A DNA stretch of 64,000 bases from Thiothrix unzii. GTDB lineage: Bacteria > Pseudomonadota > Gammaproteobacteria > Thiotrichales > Thiotrichaceae. Both the position numbers and the translations under genes were made by a program. Numbering within the stretch: position 1 is the first letter of the stretch; the number at the start of each line of letters is the position of its first letter. This document shows, one piece after another, positions 53,195 to 62,141 of the stretch. The notes below the pieces were generated by a model. The model made no database searches, was not told the DNA's origin, and worked only from the letters and a program-made list of their open reading frames with translations. The stretch lies in NCBI RefSeq assembly GCF_017901175.1, contig NZ_CP072793.1, positions 1,860,001-1,924,000 of the forward strand, written 5' to 3'.

Positions 53195-54508
53195 GAGTCT
53201 GTCAAATAAACTGTGTAACACGTTTTTCATAGGGCGGAGAGCGGAACCCGCTCTTCACCGAACATAAGTAAAAAAGTCTGCAAAGCGGGTTTCCAGTGGT
53301 GAATGACCGACCACTTTTGCGAGGCTTCGCGTACCGCCAAATACAGGCTTTTGAGGGCTGAACTGTCATTGGGAAAGATGCGCCGGTTGCGGGTAAACTT
53401 GCGCAAACTCATGTTCAGGGATTCAATCGCATTGGTGGTGTAAATCACTTTGCGGATCTCCGGCTGGAACTGGAAAAACGGGATGACATTCGCCCAGTTA
53501 CCGCGCCATAGACGCACGACTGCTTTGTATTTGTTACCCCATTCGGTGTCGAGGGCTTCCAGTTCGTGTTCGGCTTCTTCAGCAGTGCTGGACTGGTAAA
53601 TGCGCTTGAGGGCAGCGACCACACCTTTGGTATCCTTGGCGGTGACGTAGCGCAAGCTGGCGCGAACCATGTGTACCATGCACAACTGGGTCAGCGTTTT
53701 GGGGAAGACCGCGTTGACGGCTTCAGGCAAGCCGTTTAAGCCATCCATGCACGCCACGTAGATGTCTTGTACGCCCCGGTGGCGTAGTTCCGTCAAGACC
53801 GATAACCAGAACTTGGCACCTTCATTTTCTGCCAACCAGATGCCCAACACGTCCTTTTCACCGCGTAAGTTGACCGCCAATACCACATGGGCTGATTTAT
53901 TGATGACCTGCTTATCTTGTTGAACTTTAACGACAATCCCATCGAGCCAGACAATCGGGTAGATATTATCCAGTGCTCGCGTCTGCCACGCTTTAGCTTC
54001 GCCCTGAACGGCTTCGGTTACTTCCGCGATCAGCGTATGCGAGATGTCCACCCCGTACAGGCGTTTGATCGTGTCTTCGATGTCGCGGGTGGTCATGCCT
54101 TTGGCGTACAGCGTCAGGATGTGTTCTTCCATCCCTGCTAACCGTATTTGGCGTTTTTGTATCAACTTCGGCTCAAAGCTGCCATCACGGTCACGCGGTG
54201 TCTCTACCTGCAACTCACCAAATTCGCCTTTGATGGTCTTGTTGCCTTTGCCGTTACGGGTATTGCTGCGCCGTTGCCCGGCTTCGCTACGCTCACCCTT
54301 GTCGTAGTTTAGGTGCACATCCAATTCGGCTTCCAAGCTGCGGTTGATCATCCGCTGCAAGAGCTGGCTGTAAAGGTTTTTGACATCAGCAGGCGTTTTG
54401 CAATCGCTGAGTAAGTCATCCATGAGTTTCGGGTCGAGGCGTTCCATGTTACTGCTCCTTCTTGGGATTCACGTTATATAGCAGTTACACAGTTCAGTTT
54501 ACAGTCTC
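53195..54508 (-). mobile_element. IS256-family insertion sequence, copy 1 (intact)
   Basis: The element is 1314 bp. The ends are imperfect 25-bp inverted repeats (GAGTCTGTCAAATAAACTG at 53195 and the complement of GAGACTGTAAACTGAACTG ending at 54508, 21 of 25 matching). Flanks TTTTTTCT and GAAACGGC differ, so there is no target duplication. This points to later deletion or recombination at one side. Copy 2 at 55751 is in the opposite direction and differs by one missing base. Confidence 0.9.
53227..54447 (-). CDS. IS256-family transposase
   Basis: The protein has 406 residues, typical for IS256/Mutator-type DDE transposases: MERLDPKLMDDLLSDCKT at the start, the first catalytic Asp in PIVWLDGIVVKVQ, the second in YVACMDGLNGLPEAV and the Glu in YTTNAIESLNMSLRK near residue 345. 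It is full length and should be functional. It could supply transposase to the frameshifted second copy. Confidence 0.96.
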   Translation of the reverse strand: MERLDPKLMDDLLSDCKTPADVKNLYSQLLQRMINRSLEAELDVHLNYDKGERSEAGQRRSNTRNGKGNKTIKGEFGELQVETPRDRDGSFEPKLIQKRQIRLAGMEEHILTLYAKGMTTRDIEDTIKRLYGVDISHTLIAEVTEAVQGEAKAWQTRALDNIYPIVWLDGIVVKVQQDKQVINKSAHVVLAVNLRGEKDVLGIWLAENEGAKFWLSVLTELRHRGVQDIYVACMDGLNGLPEAVNAVFPKTLTQLCMVHMVRASLRYVTAKDTKGVVAALKRIYQSSTAEEAEHELEALDTEWGNKYKAVVRLWRGNWANVIPFFQFQPEIRKVIYTTNAIESLNMSLRKFTRNRRIFPNDSSALKSLYLAVREASQKWSVIHHWKPALQTFLLMFGEERVPLSAL

Positions 54509-54597: not shown

Positions 54598-55692
54598 TTG
54601 ACTGTTGTTCAAAAACTAGAAAAGCAAACTAGAATTTTTAGAATGCTATCAATACTTGTTCTTGTCATTATTTTTATAATAATGATCGGAGCATACAAAC
54701 TATTCACAACAACATCTCTTGATGTTAGTTCAGTGAAAATAAAAAATCCACAAGAGGAAATTAACAAAGCCAATAAAATAAACGACTCAGATGAAAATAT
54801 TAAATTTATTGAGAACATGAAATTCACAAAAATACAAATGTATGACTTTCAAAACCACCCTTACTATATGGCATATATTAAAGAAATATCCTCATTAAGC
54901 ATTGAAGAATATCTTCAAATTAATAAAGTTTTTGAAAGAATTATCGAAATCTTAAAAAAAGATGATAATGCCGAATATGATTATAAAGATTTATTCAAAC
55001 AAGAAATTGGAAGTGAAATAGATTCATATAGGGCATACTATTTAAATCCCTATGGCACTTACACATATTACAACCAAATATTATTATATACCAAAAAAAT
55101 ACGTGATTACAATAACCACTACCCAAATGACCAATATGATTCAAGTGTATTTGTTTTGTTGAAATCGGTAGATGAAATAAATAAAGAAGTTACTAATTAT
55201 TCATTCATTACAAATATGCAGAATATATTTAATTCTACTTATGCAAACAAAGATTCACTTATAAAATTTAATAATAAAACCATCGCCGATGATGCAGCTA
55301 AATTCAATGAGCTTGTTAATGCAAAAATAAAAAATGAAGAAGTGTTTATAAAGTCAATAGAAAACAAGAAGACAGAATTAAAAAGCGAACTAAATGAAGA
55401 AGAAGACAGAATACAAAAAAATCAATTCTATATTTACAATTCACTTGCCATAAAAGCATTTACCTCTATAATGTTATTTCTTCTTGTTAAAATGTTTATG
55501 GAACTATTTAAATATACATTAAGAATGTCTGTTTTTCACTCGACAAAAGCCAGCTTAATTAGCTTAATGTATGAATTAAAAATCTCAGACCCTGAAAAGC
55601 TAAAAGATATATTCCATTCAGAAGCGATTGATTTTCAATCGCCGGATGCAACTGATTTTATTAAAGCAGTAATTGAAAGCGTTAAAAAGTGA
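54598..55692 (+). CDS. Cassette A protein: unrecognised two-helix membrane protein
   Basis: The product has 364 residues from a TTG start at 54598 with AAAGG upstream. It is very AT-rich and Lys/Ile/Asn-rich, unlike flanking genes. A membrane helix at about 14-35 (LSILVLVIIFIIMIGAYKLF) and another at about 284-304 (FTSIMLFLLVKMFMELFKY) enclose a 245-residue loop with coiled-coil parts. A 55-residue tail follows. No family is recognised. It starts 21 bp after the cassette boundary and stops 7 bp before the attC, the compact layout of integron cassettes. Confidence 0.75.
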   Translation: MTVVQKLEKQTRIFRMLSILVLVIIFIIMIGAYKLFTTTSLDVSSVKIKNPQEEINKANKINDSDENIKFIENMKFTKIQMYDFQNHPYYMAYIKEISSLSIEEYLQINKVFERIIEILKKDDNAEYDYKDLFKQEIGSEIDSYRAYYLNPYGTYTYYNQILLYTKKIRDYNNHYPNDQYDSSVFVLLKSVDEINKEVTNYSFITNMQNIFNSTYANKDSLIKFNNKTIADDAAKFNELVNAKIKNEEVFIKSIENKKTELKSELNEEEDRIQKNQFYIYNSLAIKAFTSIMLFLLVKMFMELFKYTLRMSVFHSTKASLISLMYELKISDPEKLKDIFHSEAIDFQSPDATDFIKAVIESVKK

Positions 55693-55750
55693 ATATATTT
55701 TCTAACGAGAACATCGACGACGGACGCGGTGACAGCCCGTGATTCTTAAT

Positions 55751-57063
55751 GAGACTGTAAACTGAACTGTGTAACTGCTATATAACGTGAATCCCAAGAA
55801 GGAGCAGTAACATGGAACGCCTCGACCCGAAACTCATGGATGACTTACTCAGCGATTGCAAAACGCCTGCTGATGTCAAAAACCTTTACAGCCAGCTCTT
55901 GCAGCGGATGATCAACCGCAGCTTGGAAGCCGAATTGGATGTGCACCTAAACTACGACAAGGGTGAGCGTAGCGAAGCCGGGCAACGGCGCAGCAATACC
56001 CGTAACGGCAAAGGCAACAAGACCATCAAAGGCGAATTTGGTGAGTTGCAGGTAGAGACACCGCGTGACCGTGATGGCAGCTTTGAGCCGAAGTTGATAC
56101 AAAAACGCCAAATACGGTTAGCAGGGATGGAAGAACACATCCTGACGCTGTACGCCAAAGGCATGACCACCCGCGACATCGAAGACACGATCAAACGCCT
56201 GTACGGGGTGGACATCTCGCATACGCTGATCGCGGAAGTAACCGAAGCCGTTCAGGGCGAAGCTAAAGCGTGGCAGACGCGAGCACTGGATAATATCTAC
56301 CCGATTGTCTGGCTCGATGGGATTGTCGTTAAAGTTCAACAAGATAAGCAGGTCATCAATAAATCAGCCCATGTGGTATTGGCGGTCAACTTACGCGGTG
56401 AAAAGGACGTGTTGGGCATCTGGTTGGCAGAAAATGAAGGTGCCAAGTTCTGGTTATCGGTCTTGACGGAACTACGCCACCGGGGCGTACAAGACATCTA
56501 CGTGGCGTGCATGGATGGCTTAAACGGCTTGCCTGAAGCCGTCAACGCGGTCTTCCCAAAACGCTGACCCAGTTGTGCATGGTACACATGGTTCGCGCCA
56601 GCTTGCGCTACGTCACCGCCAAGGATACCAAAGGTGTGGTCGCTGCCCTCAAGCGCATTTACCAGTCCAGCACTGCTGAAGAAGCCGAACACGAACTGGA
56701 AGCCCTCGACACCGAATGGGGTAACAAATACAAAGCAGTCGTGCGTCTATGGCGCGGTAACTGGGCGAATGTCATCCCGTTTTTCCAGTTCCAGCCGGAG
56801 ATCCGCAAAGTGATTTACACCACCAATGCGATTGAATCCCTGAACATGAGTTTGCGCAAGTTTACCCGCAACCGGCGCATCTTTCCCAATGACAGTTCAG
56901 CCCTCAAAAGCCTGTATTTGGCGGTACGCGAAGCCTCGCAAAAGTGGTCGGTCATTCACCACTGGAAACCCGCTTTGCAGACTTTTTTACTTATGTTCGG
57001 TGAAGAGCGGGTTCCGCTCTCCGCCCTATGAAAAACGTGTTACACAGTTTATTTGACAGACTC
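55751..57063 (+). mobile_element. IS256-family insertion sequence, copy 2 (frameshifted), inside an attC site
   Basis: The element is 1313 bp with the same terminal repeats as copy 1, opposite orientation. It is flanked by a perfect 8-bp target duplication TTCTTAAT (55743-55750 and 57064-57071), typical of IS256. It is one base shorter than copy 1 because CCCCAAAACG has become CCCAAAACG near 56560. Confidence 0.95.
55812..57031 (+). pseudogene. IS256-family transposase, disrupted by a 1-base deletion
   Basis: The first part (251 codons) is identical to copy 1 up to VNAVFPK, then goes out of frame and stops at 56567. The rest (152 codons from 56573) continues the copy 1 protein to the end. 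The break falls in a C-run followed by A-run (CCCAAAAC against CCCCAAAAC in copy 1). The C-run is the sort of place where single-base loss occurs. The DDE triad is split, so this copy needs transposase in trans. Confidence 0.92.
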
Positions 57064-57208
57064 TTCTTAATTTCTACTCCCCGCCGCGCCCGTCATGTTG
57101 ACGTTGAACTAAACCGCTAACGCGGTAGCCCACTGATTCCCAACGATTTTCCTCTGATGAGCCACACTTTAAGTGTCCGATAGATGGACATTTACAGGAG
57201 AACCCATC

Positions 57209-58078
57209 ATGAAAGTCAGCCCGTTGCGCCAGCGGATGCTGGATGCCATGCAGATGCGTGGCTATTCCCCCAGAACCCACGACAGTTATGTCCAAGCCGT
57301 CCTTGACCTAAGCCACTATTACCACCGCTCACCAGACAAGATTTCGGCGGATGAGGTGCAGCAATGGTTGCTGTGGCTGTTAAAAGAACGCCACGTTTCA
57401 TCCTCCACCTGTCACCTGTATTTCAACGGGATACGCTTCCTGTTTGTGACGGTGCTGGAAGATGCGGATTTTATGGCTTACCGCTTTGCCTTGCCCAAAC
57501 GCCAGCAACGTTTGCCTGATTTGCTGTCGCGGGCGGAGGTCAGCCAACTGGTGGCAGCCCCCGACAACCCGACCCACCGGCTGCTGTTGCTGAGCTGTTA
57601 TGCCTGCGGGCTGCGGGTCAGTGAGTTGGTGAATATCCGGGTGCAGGACATTGACGGCAGCCGCCGCATCTTGCATGTGGTGCAGGGCAAGGGGCAAAAA
57701 GACCGTTACGTGCCCGTACCCGACACCTTGCTGGCACAATGGCGGGCTTACTGGCAGCGTTGCCACCCCAAACAATGGCTGTTTCCGGGGAAATACTACG
57801 GCTACCAACAGTCGATGACGACACCCCAGAAAATCTACCTGCGCGCCAAGCGGCAAGTGGGTATCCGCAAGGCAGGCGGCATCCATAGCCTGCGCCATGC
57901 GTTTGCCACGCATTCGTTGCAGGCGGGAATGCCGATCCACCAGTTGCAGCAGGTGTTGGGGCATGAGCATGTCAGCAGCACGATGCGCTATGCGCATTGG
58001 TTGCCGGAAACCCAACAAGGCGGGCAAGCCATTGATCTGCTGGCGGGGCTGGATGCCGCCGCCGTATGTTACGCCTAG
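57209..58078 (+). CDS. XerC/D-like tyrosine recombinase of the IS91-type element
   Basis: I start it at ATG 57209 with CAGGAG upstream, giving 289 residues. An N-terminal SAM-like domain (SPRTHDSYVQAVLDLSHYY) precedes the catalytic part: Arg in CGLRVSELVN, Lys in VQGKGQKDRY, HSLRHAFATH, GHEHVSSTM and nucleophile Tyr in MRYAHW. It lacks the extra helix-rich insert between patches II and III that marks integron integrases (IntI). Similar recombinases often travel with IS91-family transposases, where their role is unclear. Confidence 0.88.
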   Translation: MKVSPLRQRMLDAMQMRGYSPRTHDSYVQAVLDLSHYYHRSPDKISADEVQQWLLWLLKERHVSSSTCHLYFNGIRFLFVTVLEDADFMAYRFALPKRQQRLPDLLSRAEVSQLVAAPDNPTHRLLLLSCYACGLRVSELVNIRVQDIDGSRRILHVVQGKGQKDRYVPVPDTLLAQWRAYWQRCHPKQWLFPGKYYGYQQSMTTPQKIYLRAKRQVGIRKAGGIHSLRHAFATHSLQAGMPIHQLQQVLGHEHVSSTMRYAHWLPETQQGGQAIDLLAGLDAAAVCYA

Positions 58079-59184
58079 CCGAGGTGGTGCAGCGGTTTCA
58101 GTCACACTTGCCGCCGCTGCCACCGCCAGTGAACAAGGTGTGCCAACAACTGCTGGCGTGCCGCACCGCTGCCTTGGGTGGTTTCCAACTGCGCTGTGGG
58201 GAATGCGGCGAGGAAGTCCCGCTGTACCATGCCTGCCGCAACCGCCATTGCCCGCGTTGCCAGCAGCAGGCCAGCGAGCAGTGGCAACAGCGTGAACTGG
58301 CGAATGTTGTGCCTGCACCGTACTTCCATCTGGTGTTCACCCTGCCACATGAGTTGAACGGTTGGGTCAGGCTACATCCAGCGGTGGTTTACCATGCCCT
58401 GTTCCGCAGCGTGTGGGACACACTCAACACCTTGGGGCATGACCCCAAACGCCTCAACGGGCAATTGGGGATGACTGCGGTACTGCACACCTGGGGGCAG
58501 AACCTCAGCCAGCATGTCCACCTGCATTGCCTGATCCCCGGCGGGGCATTGGATGCTGCGCAACAGTGGCATCCGGCAAAAAGCACCTACCTGTTCCCGA
58601 TCCGAGTGCTGTCGCGCCTGTTCCGGGGCAAGCTGGTCAGCCGCTTGCGGGAGGCTGCCGAGGATGGGCAATTGCCGCGTGTCACCCACCCCGGTGAGGT
58701 TAAACAATTGCTGGGGCAACTGATGCGTAAAGACTGGGTGGTGTATGCCAAACCCTGCCTGCACAAGGCCGAAACGGTGGTGAAATATCTGGCACGCTAC
58801 ACCCGCAAGATTGCCATCAGTGAGTCGCGCCTGTTGGGTATCACCGATGAAACGGTCAGCTTCCGCTACCACGATTACCGCGATGGGCAGCAGAAAGTGA
58901 TGACCTTGGCGGGTGATGAGTTCCTGCGCCGCTTCCTGCAACACGTATTGCCTGCGGGGTTCCTGCGCATCCGCCATTACGGCTGGTTGGCGAATGCCTG
59001 CCGCAAAACCCGCTTGCCGCAAGTGCGCGAGGCCATTGCCCGTTACGCACCCACGCTGCCAATGGTGGCAGACAAGCCAATGGAAGCCATTGCTCGCTTT
59101 GATGGCATCCCTTGCCCTTGTTGCAAAACCGGGATGATGCGGGTGCGTTACCCGCTGCCGCCGCAACGGTTGGAGTATGGTTGA
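58066..59184 (+). CDS. IS91-family HUH transposase
   Basis: The protein has 372 residues. An N-terminal zinc-binding region (CGECGEEVPLYHACRNRHC, PRC) precedes the HUH motif QHVHLHCLIPGGAL and the two candidate nucleophile tyrosines in VKYLARYTRKIA. C-terminal CPCCKTG adds another zinc knuckle. It nicks and moves single strands by a rolling-circle mechanism. It overlaps the recombinase gene and is complete. Confidence 0.93.
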   Translation: MLRLAEVVQRFQSHLPPLPPPVNKVCQQLLACRTAALGGFQLRCGECGEEVPLYHACRNRHCPRCQQQASEQWQQRELANVVPAPYFHLVFTLPHELNGWVRLHPAVVYHALFRSVWDTLNTLGHDPKRLNGQLGMTAVLHTWGQNLSQHVHLHCLIPGGALDAAQQWHPAKSTYLFPIRVLSRLFRGKLVSRLREAAEDGQLPRVTHPGEVKQLLGQLMRKDWVVYAKPCLHKAETVVKYLARYTRKIAISESRLLGITDETVSFRYHDYRDGQQKVMTLAGDEFLRRFLQHVLPAGFLRIRHYGWLANACRKTRLPQVREAIARYAPTLPMVADKPMEAIARFDGIPCPCCKTGMMRVRYPLPPQRLEYG

Positions 59185-59343
59185 CGGCACAATAGGCAGG
59201 TAGGTTTAGCTTTGGGCAAGGGAAAAACAGGCAGCCCCGGACTGCCCCCCACGGCTGTTGCGTCTGCTGGACAAAAGGCTCGAAACGCCCCTGACCCTGT
59301 GCTATGTTTGACCACAATCAGGGTAGCAGGCGGTGACAAGGCA

Positions 59344-59511
59344 ATGGAAAAGCAGCAGTCGGTGTTAAATAATCGGGCAGCATGGGCTAATGTAGCGAAA
59401 GGCTGGAAAAGCAATCCCCTTATAGATAAAGAGTGGGACTCCGTAGCACGCGGTTCCGTCCAACAAGACATTTATGCCCAGTGCTGCCGCACACGGCATA
59501 AAATGCTTTAA
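59344..59511 (+). CDS. Possible small cassette protein, overlapping attC
   Basis: A 55-codon frame from ATG 59344 (MEKQQSVLNNRAAWANVAKG) ends at TAA 59509-59511, inside the attC. Protein-like composition and the position just before an attC suggest the tail of cassette B or the whole of a small cassette gene. It could instead be chance reading of the IS91-like element's flank. AAGG stands 5 bases upstream. Confidence 0.35.
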   Translation: MEKQQSVLNNRAAWANVAKGWKSNPLIDKEWDSVARGSVQQDIYAQCCRTRHKML

Positions 59512-59519
59512 CGTTATGT
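59458..59519 (+). other. attC site (62 bp), boundary of cassettes B and C
   Basis: R'' GTCCAAC (59458-59464) fits RYYYAAC exactly and R' GTTATGT (59513-59519) begins cassette C. Between them CATTTATGCC pairs with GGCATAAAATG through 10 bp with one bulged A, and an inner GTGC/GCAC stem closes on TGCC. Such an imperfect hairpin with extrahelical bases is what integron integrases recognise. Confidence 0.85.
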
Positions 59520-59532
59520 TTAGGAAAAAAAT

Positions 59533-60387
59533 ATGACCACACAGCAACAAAAAATAGACAACGTTTTTAAGCAAGTTATCTTAGGAATAGAAGATGAACT
59601 TAAAGCAATCTATAAAAAAGAATATGCAATTCCCTATACAAATGCCCTTGAATTAATCATTGAAGTTAAGGTAAAAATCAATGAAATATTAGAGGCCATG
59701 AGAAATGCAAAAAAGAACATTTCCACATCCAAAGCAATAGAAAAAGAATACACTAAAATAAAAGATGACTATGATAAAATAATGCCAAAAATAAAAAAAC
59801 TACTTCAACTTGAAAGTGCGAAAATTAATGAACTAGCCAAATCGCTTCAGATAAGAGAAGCAGCATTTCCTAATGATTTTCTAGGTGACTCACTACTAAT
59901 AAAGTCATTAGAACTAAACAGAGCAACTCTTGAAAGCACAGTTCTTCAAATAGATGACTCAAGAGCTATAACCCAAATATATATAGATTTATGTGATTTG
60001 TGTATTGATCAATATATAAAAAATACACTTGGACTTGAGCATAAGGCAAAAATTAAAAGAGAAGTAAAAGACGCGGGAGTAATCATGACCAATATTTTAG
60101 GAATGGCTCCAATAATTGGTTTACCTTTCAGCTTGATAAACTTATTAATGGCTATTGCCGAACTTAATCAATCAATATTAAAAAAACCTCAAGAGAGAGC
60201 TGATCAGCTAGAATTTTTAACCGAATTATCTAAACTATGGAATAAAGTCTTTACTGAATTAGGTCAACTGGTTGTTGATCATCTTCACATAGTAGATGAT
60301 CAACATATAAATCTTAACGATGCGAAAAACACTTTATTTTCTGATTATCAATATTGGAAAAATCGTTTAAATACAGGCCGCAATTAA
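59533..60387 (+). CDS. Cassette C protein: unrecognised helical protein
   Basis: The protein has 284 residues, starting at ATG 59533 behind TTAGGA, 19 bp after the cassette boundary and ending one base before its attC. It is AT-rich, Lys/Ile/Asn-rich. Two long charged helical segments (about 5-60 and 60-125) are followed by a central hydrophobic stretch (about 183-212, VIMTNILGMAPIIGLPFSLI) and a soluble helical end. The Gly/Pro/Ile-rich stretch could insert in a membrane. The family is unknown. Cassette genes of this type often encode toxins, antitoxins or phage-defence proteins, which is only a possibility here. Confidence 0.78.
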   Translation: MTTQQQKIDNVFKQVILGIEDELKAIYKKEYAIPYTNALELIIEVKVKINEILEAMRNAKKNISTSKAIEKEYTKIKDDYDKIMPKIKKLLQLESAKINELAKSLQIREAAFPNDFLGDSLLIKSLELNRATLESTVLQIDDSRAITQIYIDLCDLCIDQYIKNTLGLEHKAKIKREVKDAGVIMTNILGMAPIIGLPFSLINLLMAIAELNQSILKKPQERADQLEFLTELSKLWNKVFTELGQLVVDHLHIVDDQHINLNDAKNTLFSDYQYWKNRLNTGRN

Positions 60388-60388
60388 A

Positions 60389-60479
60389 ACATAACGAGAA
60401 TATCGACGACGGACGCAGTGACAGCTCGCGACTCTGCCCAATCGACTCCCCGCCGCGCCCGTCAGCCATGACGTTGAGG
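60389..60479 (+). other. attC site (91 bp) of cassette C
   Basis: R'' ACATAAC (60389-60395) is the exact complement of GTTATGT at the start of cassette C (59513-59519). R' is GTTGAGG (60473-60479). The inner arms ATCGACGACGGACGC and CGCCGCGCCCGTCAG can pair imperfectly. It is very like the IS-split attC of cassette A. Confidence 0.88.
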
Positions 60480-60761
60480 CTGTAGAATAACCTCCAAACC
60501 ACTTTTTCGACTTTTGGGGATTGAGCGAAAAATAAACAAATGTGAAGTTCTACGCAAATCTTAGAGGAGTTTTCAGTGAAAAGTGTTCAAAGATTTACGT
60601 ACTTTTGAGATTTTGTTAGAGAAACCTAGGTTTTTCTACGCCCTCGTTAAACGCCAAAAACCTACCGCCCATCAGTTTTCCGAAAATACATTTTACATAA
60701 ATTGCATATTATCCATTAGCTGACAGCTATTTTATAGATTGATAAAATTAGGGAAATTAAC
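60480..60761. other. Non-coding AT-rich leader region
   Basis: About 280 bp without a gene. It holds a 12-bp perfect palindrome AAACCTAGGTTT (60622-60633), GTTAAAC at 60646 and GTTAGAG at 60615 (R'-like but without matching arms), and an AT-rich promoter-like block (TATTTTATAGATTGATAAAAT) just before the next ATG. Confidence 0.5.
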
Positions 60762-61052
60762 ATGGATAGTATTCAACCAAATCGACCAACGCCCCCAATA
60801 AAAAACACTAAAGTTGACACTGCTGCACCATCAGCCCAATCTGTTGCCAAATTTAATGAAGCGTCCAGTGCACCTCAGATAGGTAGTGCTTTCCCTACTA
60901 TCAACGAACAGCAACAGGCAGATGATGTCCTTATAAACAACTCAAATACTCAAGAGTCTTATTGGGTTCCTAATGGTGCTGCTCCAGATGCAGCGAGAGC
61001 AGCAGCAGGCGTTCAATTTTGTCGAGTTGAAGCAAAATGTACTACACCGTAG
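60762..61052 (+). CDS. Hypothetical small protein
   Basis: The protein has 96 residues, starting at ATG 60762 with AGGG upstream. The first 60 residues are Pro/Ser/Thr/Asn/Gln-rich and probably disordered. The end has two Cys (QFCRVEAKCTTP). It has no signal peptide or known domain. It is followed within 15 bp by a small membrane protein gene, so the two may be co-expressed. Confidence 0.55.
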   Translation: MDSIQPNRPTPPIKNTKVDTAAPSAQSVAKFNEASSAPQIGSAFPTINEQQQADDVLINNSNTQESYWVPNGAAPDAARAAAGVQFCRVEAKCTTP

Positions 61053-61291: not shown

Positions 61292-61326
61292 GTCTAACTG
61301 ATTTATTCGACGACGGACGCAGCGAC
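61292..61326 (+). other. Half attC-like sequence
   Basis: GTCTAAC (61292-61298) fits R'' (RYYYAAC), and TCGACGACGGACGC at 61307-61320 is identical to the same position in the attC sites of cassettes A and C. No right arm with a GTT core follows, so the site appears truncated and probably inactive. Confidence 0.6.
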
Positions 61327-61466
61327 AAGTCCAGATTGTCATCCTCGAAGCGAAAGAGAAAGGGCTTTACCCTATTATCCCTATGAAGATGGCTGCCTGA
61401 CTCCGGTTTGCAGACTCTACGTGTCAAACAGACCTAAGACCACTAATTTTTTAGCAAGCGTATTTT

Positions 61467-62141
61467 ATGGCTAGATTTAACTTCCCCATACCCATTTGTT
61501 TTGCCACTCAATCAGGTGGAACAACGCTTGATCGTGACCAAGAAGGAGGCAATCCATTTGCGACGGCACTAATCAGGTTTTCATCGCTGTTTGACGCTAA
61601 AATTGATGAGTTTCAGGATAAGCTTGATGAATTGACAGTTGAGATTAGCCATAACCACCAGAAACCGGAATGGATAGGTGCGGAATTAAGCCAAGATTGG
61701 CGAATTCAAAAACCGAAAATTGGATCAAAAGAACGTAGAACGGCTTTAGTTCTTGTCGTATCTGATTATACCGATTCTGCCAGAGGCACGCTCAAAGGAG
61801 CGGCATGGGATGAGTTGAGAATCTCCGCGATGTTAGCAAGACACGGCTTTTCAGTGACTCAAGGCGTAGGTTCATCACGCCAAGCTATTCTTTGCGCATT
61901 GGATGAGTTTAGTAGCGTATCCAGCAATTCGGATATTTCAATTATTTACGCCACTGGTCATGGCTATGAGGCCGGAAATAATGTGTATCTTATTCCGGGT
62001 GATTACCCAATGAATAATGCCTTTGGAGCTATTGAACTGAATCAAGATGCTATAACTATTTCAAAAATCGTTAGTTCTTGTTCTGCTAAAAATATGAACC
62101 TCGTCTTTTTTGCAGGTTGTCGAACGAAGGCAGAAGATTAA
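61467..62141 (+). CDS. Caspase-like (peptidase C14) protein with permuted order
   Basis: The protein has 224 residues. The second half (about 85-224) is a caspase p20-like domain: TALVLVVSDYTDSARGTLKG, the catalytic His in YATGHGYEAGNN and Cys in LVFFAGCRTK, which is close to the C-terminus. The first 40 residues (ICFATQSGGTTLDRDQEGGN, then PFATALIRF) look like the p10 strand that normally follows the catalytic Cys in bacterial caspase homologues. So p10 appears to precede p20, or the gene is a deletion fusion of two caspase genes. No effector or sensor domain is attached. Confidence 0.7.
   Translation: MARFNFPIPICFATQSGGTTLDRDQEGGNPFATALIRFSSLFDAKIDEFQDKLDELTVEISHNHQKPEWIGAELSQDWRIQKPKIGSKERRTALVLVVSDYTDSARGTLKGAAWDELRISAMLARHGFSVTQGVGSSRQAILCALDEFSSVSSNSDISIIYATGHGYEAGNNVYLIPGDYPMNNAFGAIELNQDAITISKIVSSCSAKNMNLVFFAGCRTKAED

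What the first reader, a model, noticed from the sequence alone, without database searches (positions are those of the whole stretch)
59533..60387. Cassette C encodes an unknown helical protein with a membrane-active-looking core
The hydrophobic Gly/Pro/Ile-rich stretch at about 183-212 lies in an otherwise charged helical protein, like some abortive-infection or pore-forming proteins. The cassette is complete and its attC intact, so it may still be mobile.
Basis: partly seen in the sequence, partly recalled or inferred. Interest (0 to 1): 0.55.

Follow-up and report, generated by a model that had tools for sequence, protein, structure and literature searches.

The report
Orphan gene in a stored integron cassette
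This is an intact, probably silent integron gene cassette that codes for a helical protein with no detectable relatives and one water-avoiding stretch; whether that stretch enters a membrane cannot be decided from the sequence, and orphan cassettes like this are common.

Summary
A 284-codon ORF at 59533-60387 fills a complete gene cassette (59514-60473) with a 19-nt leader and an intact attC. Its R'' box is the exact reverse complement of the cassette's own start, and its inner boxes match 11 other attC sites of the same genome. Residues 181-209 carry no charge (64 of 20,000 shuffles do as well). The cassette sits in a small array about 248 kb from the genome's single clear integron integrase, behind a cassette carrying an IS91-family transposase and in front of a 170-bp MITE inserted at its attC. 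The protein has no relative in any collection searched, no family match and no usable fold model (mean pLDDT 42.7). Hydropathy places the stretch between clear membrane proteins and soluble ones. 'Unknown helical protein' and 'possibly mobile' stand. 'Membrane-active, like abortive-infection or pore-forming proteins' is neither shown nor excluded. My best reading is a silent, lineage-restricted accessory gene whose product probably associates with the membrane through a kinked hydrophobic hairpin: an ordinary orphan cassette, low interest. The neighbourhood is more notable: an IS1182-family element and its MITEs repeatedly sit at the attC GTT.

The parts
59533..60387 (+). Cassette C gene, 284 aa, no relatives found
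   Evidence: negative searches
60073..60159 (+). Codons 181-209: 29-residue uncharged Gly/Pro/Ile-containing hydrophobic run
59514..60473 (+). Cassette C, from the G^TT crossover of the preceding attC to the crossover G of its own attC (960 bp)
   Evidence: read; boxes printed
59514..59532 (+). 19-nt leader with ribosome-binding site; no room for a promoter
   Evidence: promoter scan of 59000-60800 no better than shuffles (5 found, mean 4.7, sd 2.2)
60389..60479 (+). attC of cassette C (R'' ACATAAC to R' GTTGAGG)
   Evidence: 18 other places in the genome match it
57104..59513 (+). Cassette B: tyrosine recombinase (57173-58078) and IS91-family transposase (58066-59184), with its own short attC at 59458-59519
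60476..60645 (+). 170-bp MITE with IS1182-type ends inserted at the attC of cassette C; GTT on both sides
54598..55692 (+). Cassette A gene (364 aa, unknown, hydrophobic segments)
55703..57109 (+). attC of cassette A, split by an IS256-family element (55751-57063) with 8-bp target repeats TTCTTAAT

Best explanation
Cassette C is a single-gene, promoterless integron cassette parked in a small integrase-less array and probably silent where it stands. Its product is a lineage-restricted, all-helical accessory protein without a signal peptide (by eye). An N-terminal part of about 180 charged, coiled-coil-like residues is followed by one uncharged Gly/Pro-kinked segment (181-209), flanked on both sides by basic residues, and a 75-residue helical tail. 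Most likely the segment acts as a short membrane-associating hairpin or anchor that holds the helical part at the inner face of the inner membrane. The gene would be expressed only after IntI moves the cassette behind a promoter. Shown: ORF, cassette boundaries, attC, lack of relatives in what was searched. Inferred: silence, helical fold, membrane association. Not shown: any activity.
For: Cassette anatomy. Integrase elsewhere in the genome. No promoter signal above chance in 59000-60800. Uncharged run rare in shuffles (64 of 20,000). Low helical moment across the stretch (0.07-0.17 for windows starting at 182-198), so it is not an amphipathic surface helix. Hydropathy above most ORFs of the window: 11th of 44 by Kyte-Doolittle, 12th of 44 by octanol scale. 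Promoterless single-gene cassettes are the norm (PMC11014356, passages read).
Against: The 19-residue hydropathy maximum is reached by 652 of 5000 shuffles. On a biological insertion scale (values recalled) the stretch scores +0.17 per residue, 15th of 44, while the ten ORFs of the window with the highest Kyte-Doolittle maxima all score below zero. Two Pro, three Gly and two Asn disfavour an ordinary transmembrane helix. The fold models are unusable. With no homologues, conservation of the segment cannot be tested.
Confidence: 0.45

Rival explanations
1. A soluble helical protein (enzyme, binding protein or regulator) in which residues 181-209 form the buried central helix or helix-turn-helix of a bundle.
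For: Borderline hydropathy and a positive insertion score; Pro, Gly and Asn inside the segment; shuffles reach the 19-residue maximum often.
Against: 29 residues without any charge is long for one buried helix and rare in shuffles (64 of 20,000).
Confidence: 0.37
2. A conditional toxin: an abortive-infection or pore-forming-like protein whose hairpin inserts into the membrane and kills or arrests the host cell on a trigger such as phage infection.
For: A helical protein with a single hydrophobic stretch at about 65% of its length resembles the layout of some alpha-helical pore formers (recalled). Integron cassettes are known stores of anti-phage genes: DefenseFinder assigned 1.8% of cassette gene groups in Xanthomonas (PMC12444791, section 13 read).
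Against: No PADLOC, Pfam, NCBIfam or PHROGs match above noise. The one pore former noticed in the fold search, MakA, is rank 45 of 45 at E 9.8 on a poor model. No partner gene in the cassette and no promoter signal above chance. The base rate is low.
Confidence: 0.12
3. A decaying or neutral open frame without function, carried passively in a stranded array.
For: No relatives; stranded array broken by insertion elements.
Against: Intact 284-codon frame with codon-position composition, ribosome-binding site and stop placed 1 nt before attC.
Confidence: 0.06

Closest known systems
Integron gene cassette of unknown function in an integrase-less array (CALIN)
   Same: Single promoterless gene, attC with R''/L''/L'/R' boxes, array far from intI; unknown single-copy cassettes are common (43.8% of 1,087 cassette gene groups were singletons in Xanthomonas; PMC12444791).
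   Different: Nothing essential; the array is small and full of insertion elements.
Abortive-infection or pore-forming proteins with a hydrophobic hairpin (for example ClyA-type helical toxins)
   Same: Only the layout: a helical protein with one hydrophobic stretch in its second half (recalled).
   Different: No sequence match in Pfam or PDB and no significant fold match.
ISShvi3-type IS91-like elements beside attC in Shewanella (for cassette B)
   Same: An IS91-like element next to an attC site yields a new cassette structure (PMC9229058, passage read).
   Different: Here five identical copies, all with the same ends at G^TT points, the one in L033 beside intI.

Membership tests
Integron gene cassette | Bounded by G^TT crossover points and ending in an attC whose R'' pairs with the cassette's own start | tested here: met
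   ACATAAC against GTTATGT, 7 of 7 pairs
Integron gene cassette | attC related to the other attC sites of the genome | tested here: met
   12 rows aligned, 83% mean column identity
Integron gene cassette | attC folds as a hairpin on the bottom strand | tested here: inconclusive
   Bottom strand -14.9 kcal/mol, z -0.05 against shuffles; the L''/L' arm pairs but not better than chance by energy
Integron gene cassette | Excised and inserted by IntI | not testable with these tools
   An intI gene is present on the same contig; activity unknown
Known abortive-infection or defence protein | Match to a defence family model | tested here: not met
   PADLOC best E 0.032, 11.8 bits, over 50 residues only; Pfam best E 0.11
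Alpha-helical pore-forming toxin | Sequence match to a family model or a solved member | tested here: not met
   hmmscan against Pfam and phmmer against PDB: none
Alpha-helical pore-forming toxin | Fold match to a solved member | tested here: inconclusive
   Foldseek: none at E <= 0.001, on models too poor to be decisive
Alpha-helical pore-forming toxin | Membrane insertion and pore formation | not testable with these tools
   Needs expression and permeability assays
Integral membrane protein | Segment with favourable insertion energy | tested here: inconclusive
   11th, 12th and 15th of 44 ORFs on three scales

The most novel reading that the evidence does not exclude
The protein is the first known member of a family of cassette-borne membrane-acting defence proteins: a cytoplasmic coiled-coil sensor joined to a membrane-inserting hairpin, stored silently and switched on by cassette shuffling.
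Probability: 0.1. Interest if true: 0.5.

Novelty: new member of a known kind. Interest (0 to 1): 0.2.

Why it matters
As it stands it is one more orphan cassette gene, a class in which function could be assigned to only 6.8% of proteins in one genus-wide study (PMC12444791). If the membrane-acting reading were true, it would add a new defence family to the integron reservoir. The neighbourhood matters more: integron recombination sites in this genus seem to be a preferred target for an IS1182-family element and its MITEs.

Tried and rejected
Homology: eight-residue pattern scans of genome contigs and of viral contigs with the whole protein, and of viral contigs with three overlapping thirds; tblastn against plasmids and phages; six-frame searches of 1, 95, 369, 398 and 394 genomes, with overlaps. 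The two weak hits were examined by their ORFs. One lies in a 591-aa ORF that I recognise from memory as AceK-like (G207). The other overlaps a 233-aa PhoU-like ORF (recognised from memory; G746). Both are rejected as helical-composition matches of under 20 bits covering about a third of the query; neither ORF was run against a family library.

Structure: AlphaFold2 from the single sequence gave mean pLDDT 42.7, and codons 150-284 alone gave 51.7. Both Foldseek searches gave only helical-protein noise. I did not use the third Foldseek job or the VIA aligner, because the models do not deserve it.

Paralogy with the protein of cassette A was rejected: best local match 28% over 58 residues, E 0.16. 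A scan of genome contigs with the tyrosine recombinase of cassette B, meant to find named carriers, found none.

Organism: not named by the tools. I guessed Thiothrix from memory and searched papers with that name; the ten papers listed looked like environmental surveys by title and abstract start. The guess was not tested and nothing rests on it.

Full report
What was checked. The frame is there as stated: 284 codons, ATG to TAA, plus strand. It is 30.2% GC in a window of 50.3%, with codon-position GC of 44, 25 and 21%. A first-order Markov model of the same DNA gave no ORF of that length in 2000 trials (longest 153).

Cassette anatomy. The sequence ...TTTAACG^TTATGTTTAGGAAAAAAATATG... opens the cassette at 59514 with a 19-nt leader. 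The stop codon ends at 60387 and the R'' box ACATAAC follows at 60389-60395. In the circular form R' would be G plus TTATGT, the exact reverse complement of R''. The attC body matches 18 other places in the genome. Twelve sites, this one included, align at 83% mean column identity. Folded alone as DNA, the bottom strand is not more stable than shuffles (z -0.05), so the box pattern and the relatives carry the attC call, not the energy.

Surroundings. Upstream, cassette A (gene 54598-55692) has its attC split by an IS256-family element with 8-bp target repeats. Then comes cassette B, 57104-59513, with a tyrosine recombinase and an IS91-family transposase. It ends in a short attC with a hairpin (bottom strand z -2.20). 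It is present in five identical copies in the genome, all with the same ends at G^TT. Downstream, a 170-bp MITE with IS1182-type ends sits directly on the GTT of cassette C's attC. A cut attC-like stretch lies at about 61296-61339. The genome's one integron integrase over the model's cut-off lies at C2:2168931-2169869, about 248 kb from this cassette. The place is therefore a small integrase-less array. A promoter scan of 59000-60800 found no more sites than shuffles, so the cassette is probably silent here; that is inference.

The protein. Residues 181-209 form a 29-residue run without charged residues. Runs that long occur in 64 of 20,000 shuffles; plain 19-residue hydropathy is reached in 652 of 5000. 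The helical hydrophobic moment is low across the stretch. The ten ORFs with the highest Kyte-Doolittle maxima all have negative insertion scores; this one is +0.17. The octanol scale is not very specific: the IS256 transposase ORF at 53227-54447 reaches -7.3 against -9.4 here. The segment is thus intermediate: a kinked membrane hairpin and a buried helix both fit. Basic residues on both sides (KAKIKREVK before, LKKPQER after) fit a hairpin with both ends inside slightly better than a single crossing; that is inference.

Relatives. None. Family libraries gave only noise: Pfam best E 0.11, PADLOC 0.032, PHROGs 0.071, NCBIfam 0.037. PDB sequences gave best E 0.29. Plasmids, phages, viral contigs and genome contigs gave none. 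Whole genomes gave 1 of 95 (itself), 2 of 369 (itself and one composition match), 3 of 398 at a looser limit (itself and two) and 0 of 394. No genome of the same genus other than its own has it (0 of 15). Divergent relatives, and anything outside these samples, could be missed.

Structure. The full model has mean pLDDT 42.7 and pTM 0.30, all helix. The C-terminal 135 residues give 51.7. Foldseek against the PDB found nothing at E <= 0.001 for either.

Comparison. Orphan cassettes are common. In 706 Xanthomonas genomes, 43.8% of cassette gene groups were singletons, a function could be assigned to 6.8%, and 1.8% were called phage defence (PMC12444791, section 13 read). Promoterless single-gene cassettes are typical (PMC11014356, passages). 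That integrons store anti-phage genes is in print: the titles of three 2025 papers were seen in that paper's reference list; the papers themselves were not read.

Verdict. Interest is low for the cassette itself.

Side finding. The IS1182-family transposase (507 aa, 264.2 bits against a cut-off of 270, so just below it) and the MITEs share ends GAGGNTGTAGAANAACC. In this genome, 15 pattern matches with up to three mismatches comprise 8 ends preceded by GTT (7 of them directly behind an attC inner box), 4 preceded by AAC (the far end), and 3 with neither. In 57 genomes, this one included, there are 74 exact matches in 16 genomes (0 for the reversed control pattern). Of the 30 loci read, 10 matches sit at an attC GTT, 12 are AAC ends, 3 are preceded by GTT without attC, and 5 by neither (sorted by eye). 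Two of the 30 loci are from the window's own genome. The insertion favours attC strongly but not exclusively. IS1111-group elements that target attC are known (PMC11187229, passages). My paper searches showed no IS1182 case by title and abstract start, but they cover open-licence papers only and I did not open every paper listed.

Noticed in passing
window 60476-60645; also L060-L072 and L079-L104: An IS1182-family element and short MITEs with the same ends sit at the GTT of attC sites, apparently in one orientation, with GTT on both sides where both ends are visible. Seen in this genome (7 of 15 pattern matches directly behind an attC box) and in relatives (10 of 30 loci read, the window's own included).
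   Followed up: partly
window 57104-59513; L030-L033: A cassette carrying an IS91-family transposase plus a tyrosine recombinase, with its own short attC, in five identical copies all with the same ends at G^TT points. The one in L033 lies beside intI. A 93% copy exists in relative G015.
   Followed up: partly
L030, L031, L032, left flanks of the cassette B copies: The left flanks of these three copies resemble the flank beside intI in L033 (attI-like) by eye, yet no further integron integrase over the cut-off was found in the genome: possible solo attI-like sites.
   Followed up: no
L033 8458-9876 (+): The integron integrase is 472 aa, about 157 residues longer at the N terminus than the 315-position model; two stretches match the SAM-like N-terminal domain.
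   Followed up: no
window 61467-62141 (+): Caspase-domain ORF (Peptidase_C14, E 9.3e-10) covering only the first 129 of 233 profile positions, just beyond the broken array; possibly truncated.
   Followed up: no
window 54598-55692 (+) and right flank of the cassette B copy in L032: The cassette A protein (364 aa, strongly hydrophobic segments, no family match) appears by eye to have a paralogue beside another cassette B copy in L032.
   Followed up: no
window 53195-54508 and 55751-57063: Two IS256-family copies in opposite orientation flank the cassette A gene; the second copy is split into two frames (251 and 152 aa).
   Followed up: no
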